In this document: positions 1 to 38,079 of the stretch, piece by piece
Layout of the letters: each line of letters starts with the position of its first letter
Position numbering within the stretch: the stretch's first letter is position 1
Virus record (IMG/VR): IMGVR_UViG_3300006565_000001
Span: 1 to 38,079 of that record
DNA: 38,079 bases
Direction: 5' to 3' (one strand)
Origin: a virus
Position numbers and translations under genes: made by a program
The notes under the pieces: model-generated
Told to the model about the DNA's origin: nothing
The model's database searches: none
Seen by the model: the letters and a program-made list of their open reading frames with translations, nothing else

Positions 1-335
1 ATATACTGAAGCAGGTAGCAATAATAGATTATTAGCATCAATGTTTCCTGAGTCAAAAGTAGCTGGAAACATTATAGATAAAGTTTATCAACCTTTATAT
101 TCTTTTGTTAAAAGAAAAATAACAGGTAGTGAAAATCAAAGAATATCAAAAGCATTTATTGATGATGATGTAAAACCTAAGATACCAGGCACACATAAAA
201 CAGATTTAGAAAATGTAAACGATATGTTGTTTTGGGAAGCTGAACTAACAAAACAACTTGAGTCTGCTATAAATTTAAGAGATAAATTAATAAATTCACC
301 ACCACCAACAAATAAAGAACAACAACAAGTAAACG
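1..335. repeat. Terminal direct repeat, left copy
   Basis: These bases are identical to 37745-38079 at the other end of the window; the right copy is cut at the same base as position 335. The repeat lies inside a coding frame that continues across the join, so the window is one 37,744-bp genome unit written with a 335-bp overlap. This could be a circular contig left untrimmed or a real terminal redundancy. The sequence alone cannot tell which. Confidence 0.97.
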
Positions 336-3500: not shown

Positions 3501-4008
3501 ATTAGATAATCTTGATACTGCTTTAAAAATTTATGACCAAGACTTAGGCGCTTTAAACAACCCTGATTTGTTTAGAGCGTTAAAAGAAATAGACCCGACA
3601 AATGGTATGATTGATACTTTTGTAAGAGTTGCGGCCGCTAATTTCTCAACAAACTTTTCAACTGGAGCTGGTGCTGGTCTTGTTATTGCTGGTAGATTTA
3701 CTAAGTTAGCTACTGCTATGTTGCAAAATTTAAAGAACGAACAAATAAAAAGAATTATTGAAGATGCTTTGTTAGATAGTAAAAAAATGGAAAGACTTTT
3801 AACAATAGGTCAAAACTTAAACAAAGATGTAGGTGATTTATCTACACCTAAAAATAAAGCTGAAGCATACACTAAATTTAGAAGTTATTTATTAACTTAT
3901 GGTGTAGAACTTACATATCCTGAGTTTGAAACAGCATGGGAAGATATGACTTTTGAAGAAAAAATAAATCAAGGTAGATTAGACGCTTTAAAATATGGCG
4001 TTCAATAA
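571..4008 (+). CDS. Very large probable internal virion / DNA-ejection protein (1145 aa)
   Basis: This is the longest gene in the genome. No catalytic domain is obvious to me. The middle part, roughly residues 390-860, is long, charged and predicted helical or coiled-coil. Near residues 1030-1060 there is a Gly/Ala-rich hydrophobic stretch (FSTGAGAGLVIAGRF), and a second Gly/Ala-rich segment lies around 290-330. Size, helix content and position at the end of the late block resemble the large ejection proteins of short-tailed phages such as T7 gp15/gp16, which enter the cell envelope with the DNA. That role is inference. No lysozyme-like ExxxxD/transglycosylase motif could be assigned. The start has only a weak A/G-rich ribosome site and follows the previous stop by 2 bases. 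Confidence 0.72.
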   Translation: MAISDIERKKKLGQIYKYLQLEPEGSYNVFNQDEKTTLNDYNNLVGILDDADELGLDEGMQEALYGMGETLNQRIDNQELNLKGLRSFNQRLLDQAGGVLDFVADVPYKIGRDLNSLGADFNVPEQGPNVSGKIKDFVFDKTGIGYGDVDERTLPTNFASRVGEYSADVVPYAFAFNRLIMNPANPFGKPLPTTAPLMNPKFGPTIPGSGPVSGMQTYKATPNNLDTILASMRRYPATRPIAAPLMEAGGATGYATGMALRDDIIEDEDAGFVKRAFAETLPLTFSLGGGVIPETARAVGGGISRALQRSLGTGDTGLIGRVVRGVTNAMQAEDGFWKAFGQGFKGKSMESGFAEPDIVGAKQKFVGGVMGYLKNTSQNIALHLRSNSKLKGISNKTDEEIQALAEEYAYKQLERALLVAKENPKEVLKNIKANNERLAKLSAGEIDDEIGQLAFIASQRGDEAGKQSPTLMALTNYEAKNNEAFLKRFAEMQAQREANMNARIENILGGQDVEFAGMTYSEAVRTALNEESNNITKTIDDFVSSSYNTLKNEFNLTDAEASTRTTQIVREIFKDVKANEKKLWKETESNFEQTTKIPFKNLEKAKNDAIVSNPADTLYNDTLKRPINTVINKLNDGESITYKEAYNLKKSIDLEINKETSKGPEINQAKLEELYNLRTALNSDIGEGYAFAKEASAITKGKHDAFTRNNTVFNIVNKTSRNTFQQEESQLAEILLEQGVAKYEKTPFGLNQIQEAIKDAVPLTGKEVAEQTKIIKESENSIQGMLALMVDDVFEPGTGTFNPNSITQWINQNQKIINQYPKFKELINKYKNNVGELTKLLNDNAFELNTVSRDPFTGEIKITSRPQTQEVNYFAQIINSENPSVVLERVLLDQKNGASQLMNIINNTKKFPNKEQALKGLKSSIVEAISRMGFATSDETPGVLVSSKFSTLMNKPHGANKTLRETLQKSGLFTKQELDNLDTALKIYDQDLGALNNPDLFRALKEIDPTNGMIDTFVRVAAANFSTNFSTGAGAGLVIAGRFTKLATAMLQNLKNEQIKRIIEDALLDSKKMERLLTIGQNLNKDVGDLSTPKNKAEAYTKFRSYLLTYGVELTYPEFETAWEDMTFEEKINQGRLDALKYGVQ

Positions 4009-4025
4009 ATATAAAGGAGATTAAA

Positions 4026-4160
4026 ATGAAAAAATTATTAACACTATTACCGGTTGTATTGGTTATAGGTTGTGCGTCTGGCCATGTCAGCGTATCAACT
4101 CAAACACCTGCTGATACTGATTTAGAAATAGTAATTAAATCTAAACCAAACGGAGAATAA
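4026..4160 (+). CDS. Tiny predicted lipoprotein (44 aa)
   Basis: The frame reads MKKLLTLLPVVLVIGC followed by a short polar tail ending KSKPNGE. This is a textbook lipoprotein signal: N-terminal KK, a hydrophobic core, and the lipobox V-I-G-C with Cys at residue 16. A good ribosome site (AAAGGAG) precedes the start, and the next gene begins 2 bases after the stop. The mature peptide would be about 29 residues, anchored by lipid at the inner or outer membrane. Size and type fit an Rz1-like outer-membrane spanin or a superinfection-exclusion lipoprotein (T5 Llp-like). The mature part is not proline-rich, which argues mildly against a classic Rz1. Confidence 0.8.
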   Translation: MKKLLTLLPVVLVIGCASGHVSVSTQTPADTDLEIVIKSKPNGE

Positions 4161-4162
4161 TT

Positions 4163-4723
4163 ATGGCAAAAGCCGCAGGAACTGCCTCTGCCGCAGGAAG
4201 CATGAATAGTATAATGAAAGCGGCCGTTCAAAAAAGAATGGCTGAAAAATTTGGTGGCGATGGCAGTTTAAAAAAAGCTGGTGAAAATGTTATAAACGCA
4301 CCTGAGATTATTAGGAAAGGTATATCTGATAGTATTAATAGTGTAACAGACCCTAATACCTATACAGATAAAATTAATGTTTCTTTAGAACCAGTCAGGT
4401 TAACTAAAAATTTATTCAATACAAACGATAGAACTTTTGGGGAAAGAGGTTACGACCTGTATAGAAATAGAATAGAAAATAAATTCGGTTCTAAACCAAG
4501 TGCTTTTGCCAGCATGGCAGATAATCAAGAATTAAATAAAAACAATGAGATGATAATGCAATCCTTGTTAGAACAATACGGACCTAATAAAGATTTTTTA
4601 AATACACCAATAAAAACTATTGATGCTTTAAAATTAAATCAATCACAAACTAGACTTGCAAATGATGAAATTAATAAATCTGATAGAAAATACAAATTAA
4701 AAAAGCGTGGTATATTTGGTTAA
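4163..4723 (+). CDS. Hypothetical protein at the end of the late operon (186 aa)
   Basis: I do not recognise the family. The N-terminus is small-residue rich (MAKAAGTASAAGSMNS), the body is helical and polar, and the end is basic (KYKLKKRGIFG). It is the last rightward gene of the late block, before convergent leftward genes that end at 4766. An N-terminus of this kind and a position beside large structural genes suggest a minor virion protein. Its two Ala-Ala pairs near the start are written GCC-GCA, and a third is GCG-GCC, the genome-wide pattern described in the findings. Confidence 0.7.
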   Translation: MAKAAGTASAAGSMNSIMKAAVQKRMAEKFGGDGSLKKAGENVINAPEIIRKGISDSINSVTDPNTYTDKINVSLEPVRLTKNLFNTNDRTFGERGYDLYRNRIENKFGSKPSAFASMADNQELNKNNEMIMQSLLEQYGPNKDFLNTPIKTIDALKLNQSQTRLANDEINKSDRKYKLKKRGIFG

Positions 4724-5274: not shown

Positions 5275-5301
5275 AAAAAATGAGGGGCTATTAACCCCTC
5301 A
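5275..5301 (-). terminator. Rho-independent terminator for the GHKL/HEXXH gene
   Basis: A perfect 7-bp stem, TGAGGGG (5281-5287) with CCCCTCA (5295-5301), encloses a 7-base loop. On the minus strand it is followed by six or more T residues (5275-5280). It sits 14 bases past the stop of the leftward gene ending at 5316. Confidence 0.85.
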
Positions 5302-5315
5302 CTATTTCCTTTCTA

Positions 5316-6803
5316 TTACACTTTAAGCATTATTAACTTTGCACCTATTTTGCATAAGCCGTCATAGTAATTGCTACTAAGGTGGTCAGAAGAATAGTAA
5401 TGACCAAACTCATGTATTAATAGTTCAAGTATTTTTTGTTTGTTATTCTCTAAGTCAAACCAATTACGACCAAGAACATTAAAGAACAACTGCAAGTTAG
5501 AGTTACCATAAGAAGCGTAAGCACCTCTGCCGTCGTGAACTATTACAGACAAAGTTCCAAAACCTAATTGCTCATGTAAGAACTTTGCATAGTCAACTAC
5601 TTCTTGCATCTTATCATCAATAGGAACTTCTTTTGCATCAGAACTAAACTCAGGTTTTGCATAATAACCAATTTGACCAGAAGGTAAGGCAAAGTCAGAA
5701 TATTGCTCTCTTACTTCTTTCACTTTTGACCATGCTTCTTTAGAAAGTTGGCTGCCTGATATAACTTGCTTACCGTCTGCAAACGCTTTCTTATTTGCTT
5801 CAATATCAGACATATCATATACAACTGCATCATCGCCAAACTTAGCATCAATAACAGACTTAACTGCTTCAGCAGTAGCTTCTTTTTGCTCTAAGGCCTC
5901 TTGTGCAAAAGTTGTTTGCAATTCTTCTTCAGATAAATCAGTATGAGTTTGATTTAAAACAAATGCTTTTAACTTTTTAAGATAAGCTGGTTTAACATTG
6001 TCTCTATCTTTAGAAAGAGGAACTTTTTGATTAACATTTATTGTGAAAGGTATATCAGTTTCAACAACTGGTATTCCTAATTCACAAATATAGTTTTTAT
6101 CTAAAGACTTAAACAATTCAATTTCAGTCAGTCTTGAAGTGGGTGTAAAATTACCTTCTTCATCAACAGTTACAGTTGGTAAAGTTTCTGTAAAGACTGA
6201 GTGATTGTTTGCTCTTTTTAATAAAACATTGTTAATCAAAAACTCAACATTTTTTGGTGGTATTATAGTTTTAGATAAGTTTAATATTTCTTCATATTCA
6301 CTTTTCTTTAACTTAATTACACCTTCAAAAATTGAACCTTTTTCAGTTTTAGTTGAGGTCTTAGTTCTAGTGCCATCAGATTTAAAAAGTATAGTTCCTT
6401 TAGTGCTAACTATCTTTGCTTCTTTAAACATAGCTAAAGAAGATTTAGTGCCGTAGGAAAATCTACCTCTCTTTGAAGTATCATTAGCTTTGTAGCTTTC
6501 ATTAAATAATGTATAAGCATCAGCTAATTTTTTAAATCCCTCAGAACTATCATCAACAACTTTAATTGTTGAACCATTACTATCCCAAGAAACAGTAACT
6601 TCGCATTTAGAAATATCTTCATCAAAAGCATTAGAAACTAATTCTTTAATAATAAAGATTTTGTTTTTATCAGATTGATTCTTTTTAAGACCAATATGAT
6701 TTACACTAAACCATTTATTATTTGAACGAAAAGGTTTTGTCTGCATATCGCTAGAGTTCACCTTACCAACTTGAGTTGGATTTTTTTCCTTGTTAATAAA
6801 CAT
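5316..6803 (-). CDS. GHKL-type ATPase fused to a C-terminal HEXXH metalloprotease-like segment (495 aa)
   Basis: The N-terminal third carries GHKL (Hsp90/MutL/histidine-kinase) ATP-binding motifs. These are an N-box IIKELVSNAFDE (E54, N58, D61), a G1-like VVDDSSEGF (D84/D85, G89) and a G2-like GRFSYGTKSS (about 113-122). Residues about 300-460 are a charged linker. The C-terminus has LLIHEFGHYYSSDH: HEXXH at 464-468 plus a third His at 474. That is the HEXXHxxxxxH spacing of metzincin-like zinc sites, but without the usual Gly. Phage rIIA-like proteins have GHKL domains, but the joined metalloprotease-like end is unusual. The role is unknown; host takeover or defence sensing is plausible. It is transcribed alone from its own promoter and ends at a clear terminator. 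A start at residue 20 (MQTKPF) is possible. Confidence 0.75.
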   Translation of the reverse strand: MFINKEKNPTQVGKVNSSDMQTKPFRSNNKWFSVNHIGLKKNQSDKNKIFIIKELVSNAFDEDISKCEVTVSWDSNGSTIKVVDDSSEGFKKLADAYTLFNESYKANDTSKRGRFSYGTKSSLAMFKEAKIVSTKGTILFKSDGTRTKTSTKTEKGSIFEGVIKLKKSEYEEILNLSKTIIPPKNVEFLINNVLLKRANNHSVFTETLPTVTVDEEGNFTPTSRLTEIELFKSLDKNYICELGIPVVETDIPFTINVNQKVPLSKDRDNVKPAYLKKLKAFVLNQTHTDLSEEELQTTFAQEALEQKEATAEAVKSVIDAKFGDDAVVYDMSDIEANKKAFADGKQVISGSQLSKEAWSKVKEVREQYSDFALPSGQIGYYAKPEFSSDAKEVPIDDKMQEVVDYAKFLHEQLGFGTLSVIVHDGRGAYASYGNSNLQLFFNVLGRNWFDLENNKQKILELLIHEFGHYYSSDHLSSNYYDGLCKIGAKLIMLKV

Positions 6804-6812
6804 GATGTAACC

Positions 6813-6841
6813 ATACTAGATGATGCGAACCTTACTGTCAA
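6813..6841 (-). promoter_or_regulatory. Sigma70-like promoter, nearly leaderless, for the gene at 6803
   Basis: On the minus strand TTGACA (6841-6836) is a perfect -35 box. After 17 bp comes TAGTAT (6818-6813) as a -10 box. Transcription would begin only a few bases before the ATG at 6803. No ribosome site is visible there, so the message may be leaderless, or translation may begin at the internal Met20, which has an AAGGTG upstream. Confidence 0.6.
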
Positions 6842-15408: not shown

Positions 15409-15639
15409 CTACTTGTTTGGAACATAAGTGTCAACTAAGTTGGTTAATATATTCTTTAGTATATTAACAAAAATAATTAGCGATTGAGAAGCTGGAACAT
15501 TCTTAATCATACTTACTAAAAATGTTTCAGAAGTGTAAGCCATAAAAAACAATTCTTGTTCATCTCCCATGGCTCTATACTTAGTTCCTATCTTCGCTAA
15601 ATCTTTTTCAATTTGCTTTTGTAGTTCTTTTTGTTTCAT
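15409..15639 (-). CDS. Small hypothetical protein (76 aa)
   Basis: The N-terminus is charged and helical (MKQKELQKQIEKDLAKIG); the C-terminus has an amphipathic or weakly hydrophobic stretch (SLIIFVNILKNILTNLV). No family is recognised. It is the last gene of the leftward operon, and its ATG overlaps the recombinase stop (TAATG), so it is co-translated with it. Confidence 0.65.
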   Translation of the reverse strand: MKQKELQKQIEKDLAKIGTKYRAMGDEQELFFMAYTSETFLVSMIKNVPASQSLIIFVNILKNILTNLVDTYVPNK

Positions 15640-16394
15640 TACATTACCTCTTGATTGATTGCTAAACTTTTTTCATATTCTGCTGAGTCAGTTAATATTT
15701 TATTAACTGTTTGATGCGTAATTTCTGCTTCTTCATACATAGAATAAGCAGCCGTAACTGATTGTGCTATAACTCTTAAAGATTTACCCTCACTAGCTAA
15801 TTTTTTTATTAAAGCAACTGCATCATCTAACCATACGCATTTTATAAAATCTGCGTCTTTGCCTTTGCCCTCTTTTCTATAACCATAAGGAACTTTACCG
15901 CCCATACCATTCTTTACTGCTGGAAAGTCGTGATAAGCAAATTGCCTTTTTCTTTTTGTTCCAGTTCTGCAATTCTCTTTGACTCGTCTAGCATATTCTT
16001 TAGCAAAAACGGCGTGTAGTGATGCTTCAAGACCAACTTTGCTTTTAGCTATGTTGCCTGTGTTTGGCACAATAACATTAACGCCTTTAACCTTGCAGTC
16101 ATAAATAAAGTTTTCAAAGATTCTATTATCCCTTGCGAGTCTATCAATGTTAGATGCAAAAATATAATCCCCTTCTTTTAGCTGTAATAATTCTTTGCCA
16201 AACTTTCTATCTTTAAACTCTAATAGACCTGATATACCTGAATCATCAATGACTTCTGGTTGTGTATGTGGACTAATATCTTTTGACTCTTTCAACTTGT
16301 TAATTTCAAGAGTGTTTACTTCTTTCTGATTGTTTGCTGATTGATTATCTATCTGTGTTTCAGATGATAGTCTTATATAACTAATTACTCTCAT
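15639..16394 (-). CDS. Small serine recombinase (resolvase/invertase family, 251 aa)
   Basis: The N-terminus has the catalytic signature YIRLSSE (S10 probable nucleophile, R8). The later resolvase motif FASNIDRLARDNR also fits, with its conserved Arg residues and DDSGISG before it. A GGKVPYGYR stretch, as in the recombinase domain of larger serine recombinases, follows at about 165-175. Length is between invertases (about 190) and large integrases (over 450). It could resolve genome multimers, invert a segment, or act as a minimal integrase; no inverted crossover sites or att core could be recognised. AAGGAG precedes the start. Unlike most genes here it contains a GCWGC site in an Ala-Ala pair, perhaps a sign of later arrival. 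Confidence 0.85.
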   Translation of the reverse strand: MRVISYIRLSSETQIDNQSANNQKEVNTLEINKLKESKDISPHTQPEVIDDSGISGLLEFKDRKFGKELLQLKEGDYIFASNIDRLARDNRIFENFIYDCKVKGVNVIVPNTGNIAKSKVGLEASLHAVFAKEYARRVKENCRTGTKRKRQFAYHDFPAVKNGMGGKVPYGYRKEGKGKDADFIKCVWLDDAVALIKKLASEGKSLRVIAQSVTAAYSMYEEAEITHQTVNKILTDSAEYEKSLAINQEVM

Positions 16395-16406: not shown

Positions 16407-17054
16407 CTACATTAATAATAATTGCGTTTCTATATCGGTATCATTTTCATAATACTTACTTTCTTCCTTTGGATAATCTAATGCTTCATATCTCATTTTA
16501 GATTTTATTAATTTTTTATCTCTTTTATTTGCTGTTATATATACATAACGGTGTTTTTTACTTACCTCTACATACTTATATTTTTCAGGTTCTGCATCTA
16601 CATCGGCTTTAGATATTCCTCTTGAGTGTTTAAAGCCGTCTTTTAAAGCCCATTCTTTTCTTTTTTTTGATTCACCTGTGTAAATAAAATTAGTTGCTTG
16701 ATATACATAACCATTATGATTTTGCCCTGTATCAGCATAGCTTACAACAATTTTTGGTTTAGGAAGTAATCTTAAAGATTGTCCAACTAAAAACGATGCT
16801 TCATTTTTTTTGTTATTTATTAAAACTAATCTATTAAGTTCAAGAACTATTAATCTATATTCTTTACCAGCAATAGCATCACATAAATCAGGTGTTCCTG
16901 GCATACCATAAGTAACAACTCCTACTAATTCGTTATCTTGATATAAGCCATAAGCATATTGAATCATTCCAGGAAGTCTTTTGGCATAATGTATGTTAAG
17001 TATAAAAGACTTTGTTTCTTCTTTTTTAATTCTCATTACTTTATAATTTTTCAT
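16407..17054 (-). CDS. Mom-like DNA-modification protein, GNAT fold (215 aa)
   Basis: The central region matches the phage Mu Mom family as I know it: ILNIHYAKR (H22), GVVTYGMP, then LELNRLVL followed by FLVGQSLRLL. It continues with VVSYADTGQNHNGYVYQATNF and IYTG. Mom is a GNAT-fold protein that converts adenine in DNA to an N6-modified form and blocks many restriction enzymes. In Mu it is made late and tightly controlled. Here it sits in a probable early leftward operon with ArdC, consistent with anti-restriction use. The C-terminal 60 residues are basic and Mu-unlike. Alternatively it may be another GNAT of the same pattern with a different substrate. Confidence 0.72.
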   Translation of the reverse strand: MKNYKVMRIKKEETKSFILNIHYAKRLPGMIQYAYGLYQDNELVGVVTYGMPGTPDLCDAIAGKEYRLIVLELNRLVLINNKKNEASFLVGQSLRLLPKPKIVVSYADTGQNHNGYVYQATNFIYTGESKKRKEWALKDGFKHSRGISKADVDAEPEKYKYVEVSKKHRYVYITANKRDKKLIKSKMRYEALDYPKEESKYYENDTDIETQLLLM

Positions 17055-17373: not shown

Positions 17374-17601
17374 TCATTTAATAGTTCTTTTAAGTTCTTC
17401 GGCTCTAGCTTTAGTTATATTGCCCATTTTAACCATTCTATCCAGTAATTCATTTGGACTAATAATGGCGTCATTAACTTTAATAAAACTAGAGTTTTCT
17501 TTAGCGAACTCCTGTTCCTTATATTCTTCAGCTTCAGCTTTTATTTGTGCTGTAACTTCCGACAATTTACCTTTGTATGTTTTAATTAATTTTCTTGTCA
17601 T
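17374..17601 (-). CDS. Small charged helical protein (75 aa)
   Basis: A Lys/Glu-rich sequence with a probable coiled coil (VTAQIKAEAEEYKEQEFAKEN). The end, NITKARAEELKRTIK, resembles a short helical binding segment. No family is recognised. The ATG follows AAGGAG at normal distance and overlaps the stop of the ADP-ribosyltransferase-like gene by four bases. Confidence 0.68.
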   Translation of the reverse strand: MTRKLIKTYKGKLSEVTAQIKAEAEEYKEQEFAKENSSFIKVNDAIISPNELLDRMVKMGNITKARAEELKRTIK

Positions 17602-18197
17602 GCTATCTCCTTTTTGTTTGTTGACATTGTAAATTTAGAATATGGTTTTTGCCATATTTTATGACTGCAAATATTCTTGTATGAATCACCGCAGTAATAT
17701 TTATTTTCTAAAGTTATGGTTGGGTCTGAATAGTTAATAATTAATTCAGCATCTAAAACAGTATAGCGTTTTATGTTCTTTGGTTTTATAACGCCTTTAT
17801 AACAAGCGTTACCTAAAAACTTTATACTATCTTCAGCAAAGTTTTTATAGTTTAACAATTCATCTCTAAAAAACTTAGTTCTTTCTTGAATGGTTGTTTT
17901 TTCAACAGACGCTTTCCATTCAGGGTCAATTCTTGCCTTTTGTTCAAGATAATCCTCATCAGGATATAATCTATCTAACTTTACATTAACCTCAATGACA
18001 ACTGGGTCAAACTTTCTTTCTGCTACATCATAGGCACATAAAGCAAAGTGAGGTGCATAGCTATCGGTTAAATAAATCATATCTTTACGGCTTGGAAATT
18101 CTTGCCAATTAGATTGATTGTCATGCCTTGGCTTCAACCCATTAGTTAAAATATCATCAAGGTTTTTAGTTGTTGTTCCGTGATATAATGTTTTCAT
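17598..18197 (-). CDS. ADP-ribosyltransferase-fold protein (199 aa)
   Basis: The N-terminus reads LYHGTTTKNLDDILTNGLKP, then IYLTDSYAPHFAL. This is the H...Y arrangement (H6, Y42) of the ART superfamily, as in KptA-type RNA 2'-phosphotransferases, DarT/DUF4433 enzymes and related NAD-binding folds. The third catalytic residue could not be placed with certainty; the segment IKPKNIKRYTVLD near 136-149 resembles the usual closing strand. Phage ARTs can modify host RNA polymerase, ribosomes or nucleic acid early in infection, or reverse a host tag. Position in the early anti-defence operon fits such a role. The ATG overlaps the preceding stop (TAATG). Confidence 0.68.
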   Translation of the reverse strand: MKTLYHGTTTKNLDDILTNGLKPRHDNQSNWQEFPSRKDMIYLTDSYAPHFALCAYDVAERKFDPVVIEVNVKLDRLYPDEDYLEQKARIDPEWKASVEKTTIQERTKFFRDELLNYKNFAEDSIKFLGNACYKGVIKPKNIKRYTVLDAELIINYSDPTITLENKYYCGDSYKNICSHKIWQKPYSKFTMSTNKKEIA

Positions 18198-19727: not shown

Positions 19728-19785
19728 GCCTAAGACTAGGTCAGTTAAGACCTAGTTTCGGATATATAATCCTCGTCAGTTAGGC
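19728..19785 (-). ncRNA. Type I hammerhead ribozyme, copy B
   Basis: On the minus strand from 19785: stem I strand GCCUAA, core CUGACGA (19779-19773; position 7 is naturally variable), stem II GGAU/AUCC with loop UAUAU, then GAAA (19759-19756). Stem III is ACUAGGUC/GACCUAGU with a 6-base loop, followed by GUC at 19736-19734 and UUAGGC closing stem I. The predicted cut is between 19734 and 19733. Compared with copy A, paired changes occur in stems I (GUCUAG/CUAGAC to GCCUAA/UUAGGC), II and III. This is strong evidence for a conserved RNA fold. The ArdC stop codon lies in stem I. Confidence 0.95.
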
Positions 19786-20754
19786 TGACTTTGATACCTC
19801 CTTTTCCTGTTGTTCTGCTAGGCATGAATTATCAATAATGAACTGACTGGCTTTAGATGCTTTGGAGATAGCTTTCACAATGTATCGGCTATCTTCTCTG
19901 TATCTTCTGTTCCAGCTTTTAAGATAACTAGCATGGTTCATTGGTGGACTTACTGTAAGACCAGTATGACCTGACATAAATACCGCTGTAAATTCCGCTA
20001 TCAGTTCCTCAAAGGCATATTCGTCATCGCCGAACATATTGTTGAAAGGTCTTTTGAGTCTTGATTCGTGACCTGTGCTATGTCCAATCTCGTGTAATAA
20101 TGTTGATTTATAACTATGGTCTGCCGTTACGCCATTATCAAAAAAGGATGACCTTTCTGGCATTCCGATAAAGTCACCGCTAGGACTGTAAAACGCTCGG
20201 TTGCCACCTTCTTTTAGTTCGATATTCTGACTAGCTAAGTATGAGTCTATAACCTTTTGGGTTAAGTCCATATTAACCGTCATATCGGTTGGTCTTTTTC
20301 TACAGTAAGGTTCGCAAGTATCACCAAGTTCTCCTGATTTCATATTAACAACCTGACTTGCATTAAAAACGCTATAAACCTTATAAACAAAGTATTTGAC
20401 TCTTTGCTTCATAACGCCGTCAACCTCTACATCTTCAATAATTGGTGAAGAAAAGATAATTGCGGTGGATTTTTCACCCTTCTGAACTTTAAATCCTTTG
20501 GATTGCCAGTTCTTGAAAGTCCCCCAATAATCTGACTTAAAATTATTTTGATGCTTAACCCAAGGTAATACTAAAGCGTTATAACCTTTATACGGCGTGC
20601 CGTCTTGGTTCATAGCTTGACCATCTGACCAATTCTTTGACCAGTGATTAGAACCTGGCTGGTTCATCATCTCAATAATATTTTCGGACATAAAACGCTC
20701 AACCTCTTTTTTAACTGCTGAACCTTTAAGACCTTTGATTTGTAATTTATTCAT
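19780..20754 (-). CDS. ardC: ArdC-type antirestriction protein (324 aa)
   Basis: The N-terminal half matches the ArdC ssDNA-binding domain (NQPGSNHWSKNW; GTPYKGYNALVL; DYWGTFKNWQSKGFKVQKGEK). The C-terminal half is the zinc peptidase-like domain with HEIGHSTGH (H221, E222, H225, H229) and the downstream acidic AFEELIAEF. ArdC proteins protect incoming DNA from type I restriction and bind ssDNA. Here it is the first gene of the leftward operon, with a perfect AGGAGG site and a good promoter upstream, so it is probably made at the onset of infection. Its stop codon lies inside hammerhead copy B. Length is typical for the family. Confidence 0.92.
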   Translation of the reverse strand: MNKLQIKGLKGSAVKKEVERFMSENIIEMMNQPGSNHWSKNWSDGQAMNQDGTPYKGYNALVLPWVKHQNNFKSDYWGTFKNWQSKGFKVQKGEKSTAIIFSSPIIEDVEVDGVMKQRVKYFVYKVYSVFNASQVVNMKSGELGDTCEPYCRKRPTDMTVNMDLTQKVIDSYLASQNIELKEGGNRAFYSPSGDFIGMPERSSFFDNGVTADHSYKSTLLHEIGHSTGHESRLKRPFNNMFGDDEYAFEELIAEFTAVFMSGHTGLTVSPPMNHASYLKSWNRRYREDSRYIVKAISKASKASQFIIDNSCLAEQQEKEVSKSA

Positions 20755-37001: not shown

Positions 37002-38079
37002 ATGGTTATAGATAGAAGAAGAAGATTTTTAGAAGATTTAAACTTAATTAGAATGGCAGAACCTAGTAGCAATAATAACGCAGGAATGCCTAACCCTAAT
37101 ATTGGTTTTTCAACTACAACAACTCAAGGGGTTGACCCTTCTAAAGTTGAAGGGCCAAGTATTCTTGATTTTGGAGATATAATTAGAGGTGCAGTATCAC
37201 AAAAAGTAGGCACAGTAGGACCTGACGACATATTTGGTGCAGAAGTTAAAGCTGGACAAAAAGATACACTAGAACAGACAGTAAGTATTATTGATGAAAC
37301 AGGCAGAGTAGTCCATACAGGAGAAAGAAGTTCACAAGGTTTAAGCAATAAATTAACACAGCTACAAACTGATAATCCTAATGTAAGATATAGAGTAGTT
37401 TCTGATGTAGAAGTTCCTAACTTTCTTGATAGATTTAGAAGTTTAGACGCAAACCAAGAAAGAATAATACAACCATTAAATATGACAGATACTAAACCTG
37501 ATATTTTTAGAAGGGTTACTTCTGGTGTTGCTGAAGATGTTTTCAATCAATCTATTGTAGATACAGTTGCAGATGTAAGATTCGATAGTAATAATAAAAA
37601 TCAAAGTGGTAAACCAGTTATTAGAAATTTTGATTACTATAATGACACATATAAATTAGATTTACCTGATGTGCCTTTTAGTGCTTACGGACAAGGCGAA
37701 AAGTTACTTAGCTTTTTTGGCCCAACATATCAAGATGCAAGAAAATATACTGAAGCAGGTAGCAATAATAGATTATTAGCATCAATGTTTCCTGAGTCAA
37801 AAGTAGCTGGAAACATTATAGATAAAGTTTATCAACCTTTATATTCTTTTGTTAAAAGAAAAATAACAGGTAGTGAAAATCAAAGAATATCAAAAGCATT
37901 TATTGATGATGATGTAAAACCTAAGATACCAGGCACACATAAAACAGATTTAGAAAATGTAAACGATATGTTGTTTTGGGAAGCTGAACTAACAAAACAA
38001 CTTGAGTCTGCTATAAATTTAAGAGATAAATTAATAAATTCACCACCACCAACAAATAAAGAACAACAACAAGTAAACG
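37002..38079 (+). CDS. Virion-associated hypothetical protein, N-terminal part (continues at base 1)
   Basis: The ATG follows a purine-rich AGAGG and opens a frame (MVIDRRRRFLEDLNLIRMAE) that is unbroken to the window end. It continues through 1-568 after the repeated segment, giving about 436 residues in all. The N-terminus is Arg-rich and the middle mixes beta segments (VSIIDETGRVVHTGERSSQG) with helices. No family is recognised. It lies between two probable ejection proteins, so a virion role is likely. The minus-strand open frame at 37124-37546 is a shadow. Confidence 0.78.
   Translation, partial: MVIDRRRRFLEDLNLIRMAEPSSNNNAGMPNPNIGFSTTTTQGVDPSKVEGPSILDFGDIIRGAVSQKVGTVGPDDIFGAEVKAGQKDTLEQTVSIIDETGRVVHTGERSSQGLSNKLTQLQTDNPNVRYRVVSDVEVPNFLDRFRSLDANQERIIQPLNMTDTKPDIFRRVTSGVAEDVFNQSIVDTVADVRFDSNNKNQSGKPVIRNFDYYNDTYKLDLPDVPFSAYGQGEKLLSFFGPTYQDARKYTEAGSNNRLLASMFPESKVAGNIIDKVYQPLYSFVKRKITGSENQRISKAFIDDDVKPKIPGTHKTDLENVNDMLFWEAELTKQLESAINLRDKLINSPPPTNKEQQQVN
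37745..38079. repeat. Terminal direct repeat, right copy
   Basis: Identical to 1-335. See the left copy; it closes the genome into a 37,744-bp circle or marks a terminal redundancy. Confidence 0.97.

What the first reader, a model, noticed from the sequence alone, without database searches (positions are those of the whole stretch)
5316..6803. GHKL ATPase joined to an HEXXHxxxxxH metalloprotease-like end
One 495-aa protein carries N-box, G1 and G2 motifs of GHKL ATPases and, at its extreme C-terminus, a three-His zinc-site pattern. ATP-driven clamping plus a protease active site suggests a regulated cleaver or a switch acting on a host protein. It is transcribed alone with its own promoter and terminator, like a self-contained module.
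Basis: partly seen in the sequence, partly recalled or inferred. Interest (0 to 1): 0.66.

Follow-up and report, generated by a model that had tools for sequence, protein, structure and literature searches.

The report
Phage ATPase fused to zinc protease
A marine phage carries a protein that joins an Hsp90/gyrase-type ATP-driven clamp to a small zinc protease; the same two-part protein, with both active sites intact, recurs in dozens of unrelated phages, plasmids and bacterial genomes and looks like an undescribed kind of ATP-controlled protease.

Summary
The gene is on the minus strand (6803-5316, 495 aa). It carries GHKL motifs (E54..N58..D61, D84..G89, G113..G118-K120) and, at the C-terminus, HEFGHYYSSDH (464-474). 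It belongs to a wider family: 69 viral loci, 24 genome loci and plasmids. In 63 diverse members H464, E465, H468 and H474 are invariant together with the ATP-site residues, also in members not found through that motif. AlphaFold gives a confident model (pLDDT 88.8). Residues ~30-378 match Hsp90/TRAP1, topoisomerase II/GyrB and MORC (GHKL plus S5 transducer). The last 116 residues, folded alone (pLDDT 93.5), match zinc peptidases, Wss1 first (Z 8.8, 2.5 Å over 95 residues). A second GHKL family (PHROG 6077) keeps a C-terminal HExxH domain in some members and lacks it in most phages sampled. A host-type promoter just upstream of the start codon is conserved in relatives; a terminator follows the gene. 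Best reading: an ATP-gated client-clamp metalloprotease used in conflict between mobile elements and hosts. ATPase and protease activity, target and direction (attack or defence) are inferred. I found no description of such a fusion in the papers searched. New variant of a known kind: GHKL module plus C-terminal effector, here a protease.

The parts
5316..6803 (-). Whole gene, 495 aa, GHKL ATPase - S5 transducer - middle - zincin
   Evidence: translation; family alignment; model
6813..6841 (-). Sigma-70-type promoter TTGACA-17-TAGTAT; its -10 box ends 9 bases before the ATG, so mRNA is probably leaderless
   Evidence: conserved upstream of the gene in L003, L004, L005, L007, L009
6234..6725 (-). 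GHKL (Bergerat) ATP-binding domain, residues 27-190
   Evidence: Pfam HATPase_c_3 E 2.5e-5, just under cut-off; fold matches
6618..6644 (-). N-box ELVSNAFDE, residues 54-62 (E54, N58, D61 invariant)
6537..6554 (-). G1 box DDSSEG, residues 84-89 (D84, G89 invariant)
6444..6470 (-). G2/lid RGRFSYGTK, residues 112-120 (G113, G118, K120 invariant)
5934..6233 (-). S5-like transducer domain, residues 191-290
   Evidence: fold matches to Hsp90/TRAP1, topo II, GyrB, MORC reaching residue ~290-378
5994..6029 (-). Transducer loop Q259-V270, QKVPLSKDRDNV (Q259, P262, R267 invariant)
   Evidence: resembles HtpG PLNVSRE by eye only
5667..5933 (-). Middle alpha/beta segment, residues 291-379 (E335 invariant), shared with PHROG 6077 proteins
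5319..5666 (-). C-terminal zincin domain, residues 380-495: helix, three strands, active-site helix, C-terminal helix
   Evidence: model; VIA-align
5382..5414 (-). Zinc site HEFGHYYSSDH, residues 464-474; H464, E465, H468, H474 are the only invariant residues of the domain
5279..5303 (-). Intrinsic-terminator-like hairpin after the stop codon (an overlapping one reads on the other strand)

Best explanation
An ATP-gated metalloprotease. The GHKL plus S5 module works as an Hsp90/MutL-type dimeric clamp: ATP closes it on a protein client, with the transducer loop (Q259-K260, R267) sensing the nucleotide. The closure brings the client to, or unlocks, the C-terminal Wss1/selecase-like zincin, which cuts it once and irreversibly (E465 as general base, H464/H468/H474 holding Zn). 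The gene is an autonomous accessory module, expressed from a host-type promoter and carried by unrelated phages and plasmids, so the client is probably a protein of the opponent: a host defence or regulatory protein, or a competing element's protein. Shown: sequence, conservation, predicted fold of both ends, promoter conservation, sporadic distribution. Inferred: dimerisation, ATP hydrolysis, proteolysis, the coupling, the client.
For: ATP-site and Zn-site residues are invariant together in 63 members down to 28% identity. The four Zn-site residues are the only invariant ones of the C-terminal domain. Fold matches: Hsp90/TRAP1, topo II/GyrB and MORC for the N-terminal part; Wss1 5xbv Z 8.8/2.5 Å/95 residues, selecase Z 8.4, S. 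pombe Wss1 7.5, SPRTN 7.0 for the C-terminal part, with the top 17 rows almost all HExxH zinc peptidases or related zinc hydrolases. A related GHKL protein (P0002) has a SprT-like C-terminus, and its family has HExxH versions in a Moorella phage and a haloarchaeal plasmid. Purifying selection on the zincin. Virus and bacterial copies intermingle in the tree, at least 6 well-supported label changes. No shared neighbour gene in the bacterial loci. Precedent: in VcSduA a GHKL domain is followed by a nuclease and both active sites are needed for defence (PMC12137116).
Against: No biochemistry exists. The zincin Z-scores are only just above the range seen for unrelated small folds, and all Foldseek E-values for this domain are above 0.01. 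Sequence searches support GHKL only marginally (Pfam just under cut-off) and the zincin only weakly (WLM in 18 of 63 members, best E 0.002). Many relatives of the sister family lack the protease, so the clamp can do something without cutting. HtpG aligns only over the ATPase domain and weakly by profile.
Confidence: 0.55

Rival explanations
1. Single-gene anti-phage defence or superinfection-exclusion effector (a 'moron'): the GHKL part senses an invader's protein or DNA and switches on the protease, as GHKL-nuclease VcSduA (type I-D Shedu) is thought to do.
For: Solitary gene with own promoter and terminator opposite to both flanking operons; GHKL part weakly matches Tiamat TmtA; the Rhodovastum plasmid copy lies about 3 kb from a HerA/SIR2 anti-phage pair; VcSduA precedent (PMC12137116).
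Against: No consistent defence neighbourhood in the other bacterial loci; many copies lie in virus contigs, including jumbo phages; TmtA match covers only ~100 aa of 1300-1650.
Confidence: 0.25
2. DNA-clamp protease of the Wss1/SPRTN type: the GHKL-S5 clamp closes on DNA (as MutL, MORC, topo II do) and the zincin removes proteins bound or cross-linked to it, for example roadblocks on the phage genome or host DNA-bound proteins.
For: Closest peptidase fold is the DNA-protein-crosslink protease Wss1, with SPRTN also listed; topo II, GyrB and MORC2 are tied with Hsp90 among the N-terminal fold matches.
Against: No excess positive charge in transducer, middle or protease domains (family means -2.2, -4.4, -1.3); the DNA-binding basic region and Zn-binding subdomain described for SPRTN (PMC9240642) have no room in the 116-aa domain; selecase and BepA, which are not DNA proteases, score close.
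Confidence: 0.15
3. The C-terminal domain binds Zn but acts as a peptide-binding or structural module; the protein is a chaperone-like clamp.
For: Most sampled members of the sister family do without the protease domain.
Against: The general base E465 is invariant, which Zn binding alone would not require.
Confidence: 0.05
4. Virion maturation protease.
For: Phage-encoded protease next to the end of the structural operon.
Against: Opposite strand, own host-type promoter, sporadic across unrelated phages and present in bacteria and plasmids, not linked to capsid genes.
Confidence: 0.03

Closest known systems
PHROG 6077 phage GHKL proteins (unknown function; one annotated 'RIIA lysis inhibitor')
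   Same: GHKL, S5 loop and middle segment align with residues 51-377 (hhalign prob 98.7, E 1.7e-16)
   Different: The PHROG profile (366 aa) and five of the six cultured-phage members read lack the zincin; P0002, Moorella phage and Natrinema members have an HExxH end with other third-ligand spacing
VcSduA (type I-D Shedu): GHKL ATPase + PD-(D/E)XK nuclease
   Same: N-terminal GHKL clamp controlling a C-terminal hydrolase effector (PMC12137116)
   Different: Effector is a nuclease, not a protease
Wss1 / SPRTN (SprT, WLM) DNA-protein-crosslink proteases
   Same: Minimal zincin fold and, in Wss1, an HExxHx5H-type site (own knowledge); best structural match
   Different: No GHKL domain; they use Cdc48/VCP-binding and DNA-binding regions (PMC9240642), absent here
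T4 rIIA
   Same: Phage protein with N-terminal GHKL domain
   Different: hhalign finds only the ATPase region (prob 29%); no zincin reported
AAA+ ATP-dependent proteases (Lon, FtsH, ClpXP)
   Same: ATPase coupled to a protease in one machine
   Different: P-loop AAA+ ring unfoldases; here the ATPase is a GHKL clamp with no known unfolding activity
ArdC / polyvalent-protein MPTases (PF18818)
   Same: Phage/plasmid zincin fused to another domain; one is in this same genome
   Different: Third Zn ligand is a Glu in the last helix (PMC5512222); partner is ArdC-N, not GHKL

Membership tests
GHKL ATPase superfamily | N-box E..N..D, G1 DxxxG, G2 GxxxGxK on a Bergerat fold | tested here: met
   Invariant in 63 members; fold matches to TRAP1, topo II, GyrB, MORC
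GHKL ATPase superfamily | Score above Pfam gathering cut-off | tested here: inconclusive
   HATPase_c_3 24.8 bits against 25 for this protein; relative L070 reaches 28.5
Zincin-type Zn peptidases | HExxH in an active-site helix following a three-stranded sheet, with a third ligand | tested here: met
   Model m6d9844c025aa and VIA-align matches; invariance
Zincin-type Zn peptidases | Zn bound and peptide bond cleaved | not testable with these tools
   Needs protein
Wss1 / WLM | Match to the WLM profile above cut-off | tested here: not met
   18 of 63 members match but best E is 0.0021, so it is Wss1-like, not a WLM member
SprT/SPRTN | Match to PF10263 | tested here: not met
   PF10263 is not among the 25 listed Pfam families of A4; only the sister protein P0002 matches, E 5e-4, below cut-off
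Metzincins | HExxHxxGxxH with Gly at +7 and a Met-turn | tested here: not met
   Position 471 is Ser in this protein and not a conserved Gly in the family, and only ~21 residues follow the third His, without a conserved Met
Hsp90 | Hsp90 C-terminal dimerisation domain | tested here: not met
   C-terminal end is a zincin; HtpG aligns weakly (prob 9.9) over the ATPase domain only
T4 rIIA | Homology beyond the GHKL domain | tested here: inconclusive
   Single-sequence hhalign covers only residues 49-193
Tiamat (TmtA) | 1300-1650-aa protein matching along its length | tested here: not met
   Match restricted to ~100 aa of the ATPase domain
PHROG 6077 | Profile match over most of the profile | tested here: inconclusive
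   E 2.4e-5 over profile 22-297 of 366: homologous, but a separate family with a zincin
Polyvalent MPTase / ArdC | PF18818 match, Glu third ligand | tested here: not met
   PF18818 not among the matches of this protein or family; third ligand is His at +10
AAA+ ATP-dependent proteases | P-loop AAA+ domain | tested here: not met
   No AAA match for the family as whole proteins; ATP site is GHKL

The most novel reading that the evidence does not exclude
A mobile-element family of true ATP-dependent proteases powered by a GHKL (Hsp90/MutL-type) clamp instead of an AAA+ ring, in which clamp closure on a chosen client licenses a single cut by a Wss1-like zincin.
Probability: 0.45. Interest if true: 0.85.

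Novelty: new variant of a known kind. Interest (0 to 1): 0.62.

Why it matters
To my knowledge, cellular ATP-dependent proteases are built on AAA+ rings. A GHKL clamp joined to a zincin would be a different way to spend ATP on selective proteolysis, and a possible bench tool: a clamp that picks a client and cuts it. It also gives a direct handle on a large unknown phage protein group, PHROG 6077, whose members appear to be this clamp with or without the blade. The design predicts simple separation-of-function mutants (ATP site against zinc site).

Tried and rejected
Pfam, NCBIfam, PHROG and PADLOC scans name only the ATPase half, weakly. Phmmer against PDB gave myroilysin, an astacin, through the HEFGH stretch (E 0.13 alone, 0.0005 with the domain profile); rejected as kinship because the metzincin Gly and Met-turn are absent. 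Whole-model fold searches do not test the C-terminal domain, so it was refolded alone. Shared operon partners: none found in the bacterial loci; a Gp37/Gp68-type gene lies near three copies (L081, L106, L115), too few to count. Ancestry from T4 rIIA and Tiamat: only the ATPase domain matches. DNA-clamp charge signature: not seen. E. coli MutL aligned only over ~42 columns, GyrB not over its ATPase domain, HtpG only weakly. Papers: no paper in the held library describes a GHKL-zincin fusion under the terms tried; the library lacks most subscription journals.

Full report
What is there. The finding gives 5316-6803 without a strand. The plus-strand frame has many stops; the minus strand reads a single 495-aa ORF. 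The window is a virus record of 38,079 bases, 33% GC. Its first 300 bases repeat exactly at 37745-38044, so it is probably a complete phage genome. Its portal is closest to those of uncultured phages, with Pelagibacter phage HTVC106P and Sulfitobacter phages among the more distant matches.

Family. Searches with the protein and then with an alignment found 69 loci in viral contigs, 24 in bacterial genomes, among them Planctomycetota, Verrucomicrobiota, Pseudomonadota, Actinomycetota and Chloroflexota, a 485-kb uncultured phage and plasmids of Methylibium, Rhodovastum and Bosea, plus a distant copy in Picosynechococcus. It is rare in bacteria: apart from the bait genome, 1 of 398 sampled Pseudomonadota genomes at E 1e-20, and in 199 Planctomycetota one diverged full-length copy (L115). 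In 63 aligned members, 23 columns are invariant. They include the ATP site (E54, N58, D61, D84, G89, G113, G118, K120), the transducer (E241, G243, P245, Q259, P262, R267), one middle residue (E335) and the zinc site (H464, E465, H468, H474). Within the last 116 residues the zinc-site residues are the only invariant ones. Some searches were seeded on HEFGH; the 14 rows without the seed pattern, four plasmid copies and L115 keep HExxH plus a third His as well. Apart from fragments cut by a contig end, L058 keeps HEFGH with a longer gap to the third His, and L099 is a truncated copy between two identical transposase genes; no other complete member lacks the site.

Structure. AlphaFold2 on the family alignment: mean pLDDT 88.8, pTM 0.75, with residues 1-26 disordered. 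Foldseek and VIA-align put residues ~30-378 with Hsp90/TRAP1, topo II/GyrB and MORC, i.e. a GHKL domain followed by an S5-type transducer. The C-terminal 116 residues folded alone (pLDDT 93.5) have the zincin order: helix, three strands, active-site helix, last helix. VIA-align ranks Wss1 first (5xbv Z 8.8, rmsd 2.5, 95 residues; 5xbn 8.5), then selecase 8.4, jannalysin 7.8, S. pombe Wss1 7.5, BepA 7.2, abylysin 7.1, SPRTN 7.0. Such Z values are modest, but nearly every row near the top is a zinc peptidase or related zinc hydrolase. By sequence, WLM is the Pfam family that most members touch, 18 of 63, all weakly. I could not measure His-His distances, since the tool returns no coordinates.

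A second family with the same plan. Next to the copy in L090 lies another GHKL gene, P0002, whose C-terminus matches SprT-like (E 5e-4, below cut-off). P0002 belongs to PHROG 6077 and has relatives in 103 phage records. Five sampled phage members (Ab19, QdP_Psa3, K354, Pluto, ABPH49) have no HExxH end, while Moorella phage MTATph1 and a Natrinema plasmid have one. hhalign joins the two families over residues 51-377 of P0001 (prob 98.7, E 1.7e-16); the zincin ends did not align by profile. So the clamp is shared, and the blade is kept in one family and is variable in the other.

Expression. A TTGACA-17-TAGTAT promoter ends nine bases before the ATG. The relatives L003, L004, L005, L007 and L009 have the same arrangement (TTGACA, about 17 bases, a TATAAT-like box, and a start codon within about ten bases), so leaderless transcription by host RNA polymerase is likely. 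A hairpin terminator follows the stop codon. The gene lies on the strand opposite to the large ORFs on either side.

Evolution. The zincin domain has dN/dS 0.20-0.33 against L004, L007 and L009, in the range of the other folded domains; the disordered N-terminus is near or above 0.8. In the tree, virus and bacterial copies are mixed, with at least six well-supported changes of label. The gene is an accessory element that moves between replicons. No neighbour gene family recurs across the bacterial loci.

How it most likely works. ATP binding closes the clamp on a protein client, and the zincin at the end of each arm cuts it. The transducer loop QKVPLSKDRDNV resembles Hsp90's catalytic loop by eye (HtpG PLNVSRE); in Hsp90 the loop arginine R380 interacts with the gamma-phosphate and stabilises the closed clamp (PMC12280139). 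This resemblance is a lead, not a test. In VcSduA a GHKL clamp is proposed to control a C-terminal nuclease, and variants in either active site were tested (PMC12137116); it is the best functional precedent. Client and direction (counter-defence, defence, or cleavage of DNA-bound proteins) cannot be told from sequence. The absence of extra positive charge in the transducer, middle and protease domains speaks mildly against a DNA clamp.

What is known. A survey of 224 jumbo phages mentions rIIA-like proteins with GHKL plus a variable C-terminal domain, and separate SprT- and ArdC-like peptidases, but the passages found do not describe a GHKL-zincin fusion (PMC7824862). The other searches found none. 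The library is incomplete, so priority is not claimed.

Verdict. It is a new variant of a known kind (GHKL clamp plus C-terminal hydrolase), with a protease as the effector.

Noticed in passing
window 19780-20754 (-): ArdC-type antirestriction protein: ArdcN plus MPTase-PolyVal zincin (E 2.7e-35), a second zinc peptidase in the same phage.
   Followed up: partly
window 16407-17054 (-): Mom DNA-modification protein (E 4e-36) next to a serine resolvase at 15639-16394.
   Followed up: no
window 1-300 and 37745-38044: Exact terminal direct repeat: probably a complete phage genome.
   Followed up: no
window 17598-18197 (-): Protein with weak PARP / RNA 2'-phosphotransferase resemblance (E 0.005, below cut-off).
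   Followed up: no
L090:5020-6357 (-): Second GHKL protein (P0002, PHROG 6077 group) with a SprT-like end, close to a member of the present family.
   Followed up: partly
L132:1486-2880 and 3907-4341: In a Natrinema plasmid a GHKL protein with an HELAH end lies two genes before a Piwi-domain protein.
   Followed up: no
L109:7390-7899: In a Picosynechococcus plasmid a DisA-type DAC nucleotide-cyclase gene (E 1e-30) directly precedes the distant GHKL-zincin gene.
   Followed up: no
L133:889-3645: Aneurinibacillus plasmid protein that appears to hold several GHKL-S5 units in tandem in one chain.
   Followed up: no
L099:8010-9341: Truncated copy lacking the zincin, between two identical transposase genes in Candidatus Desulfobacillus.
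   Followed up: no
L107:1773-4804: HerA/SIR2 anti-phage pair about 3 kb from the Rhodovastum plasmid copy.
   Followed up: no
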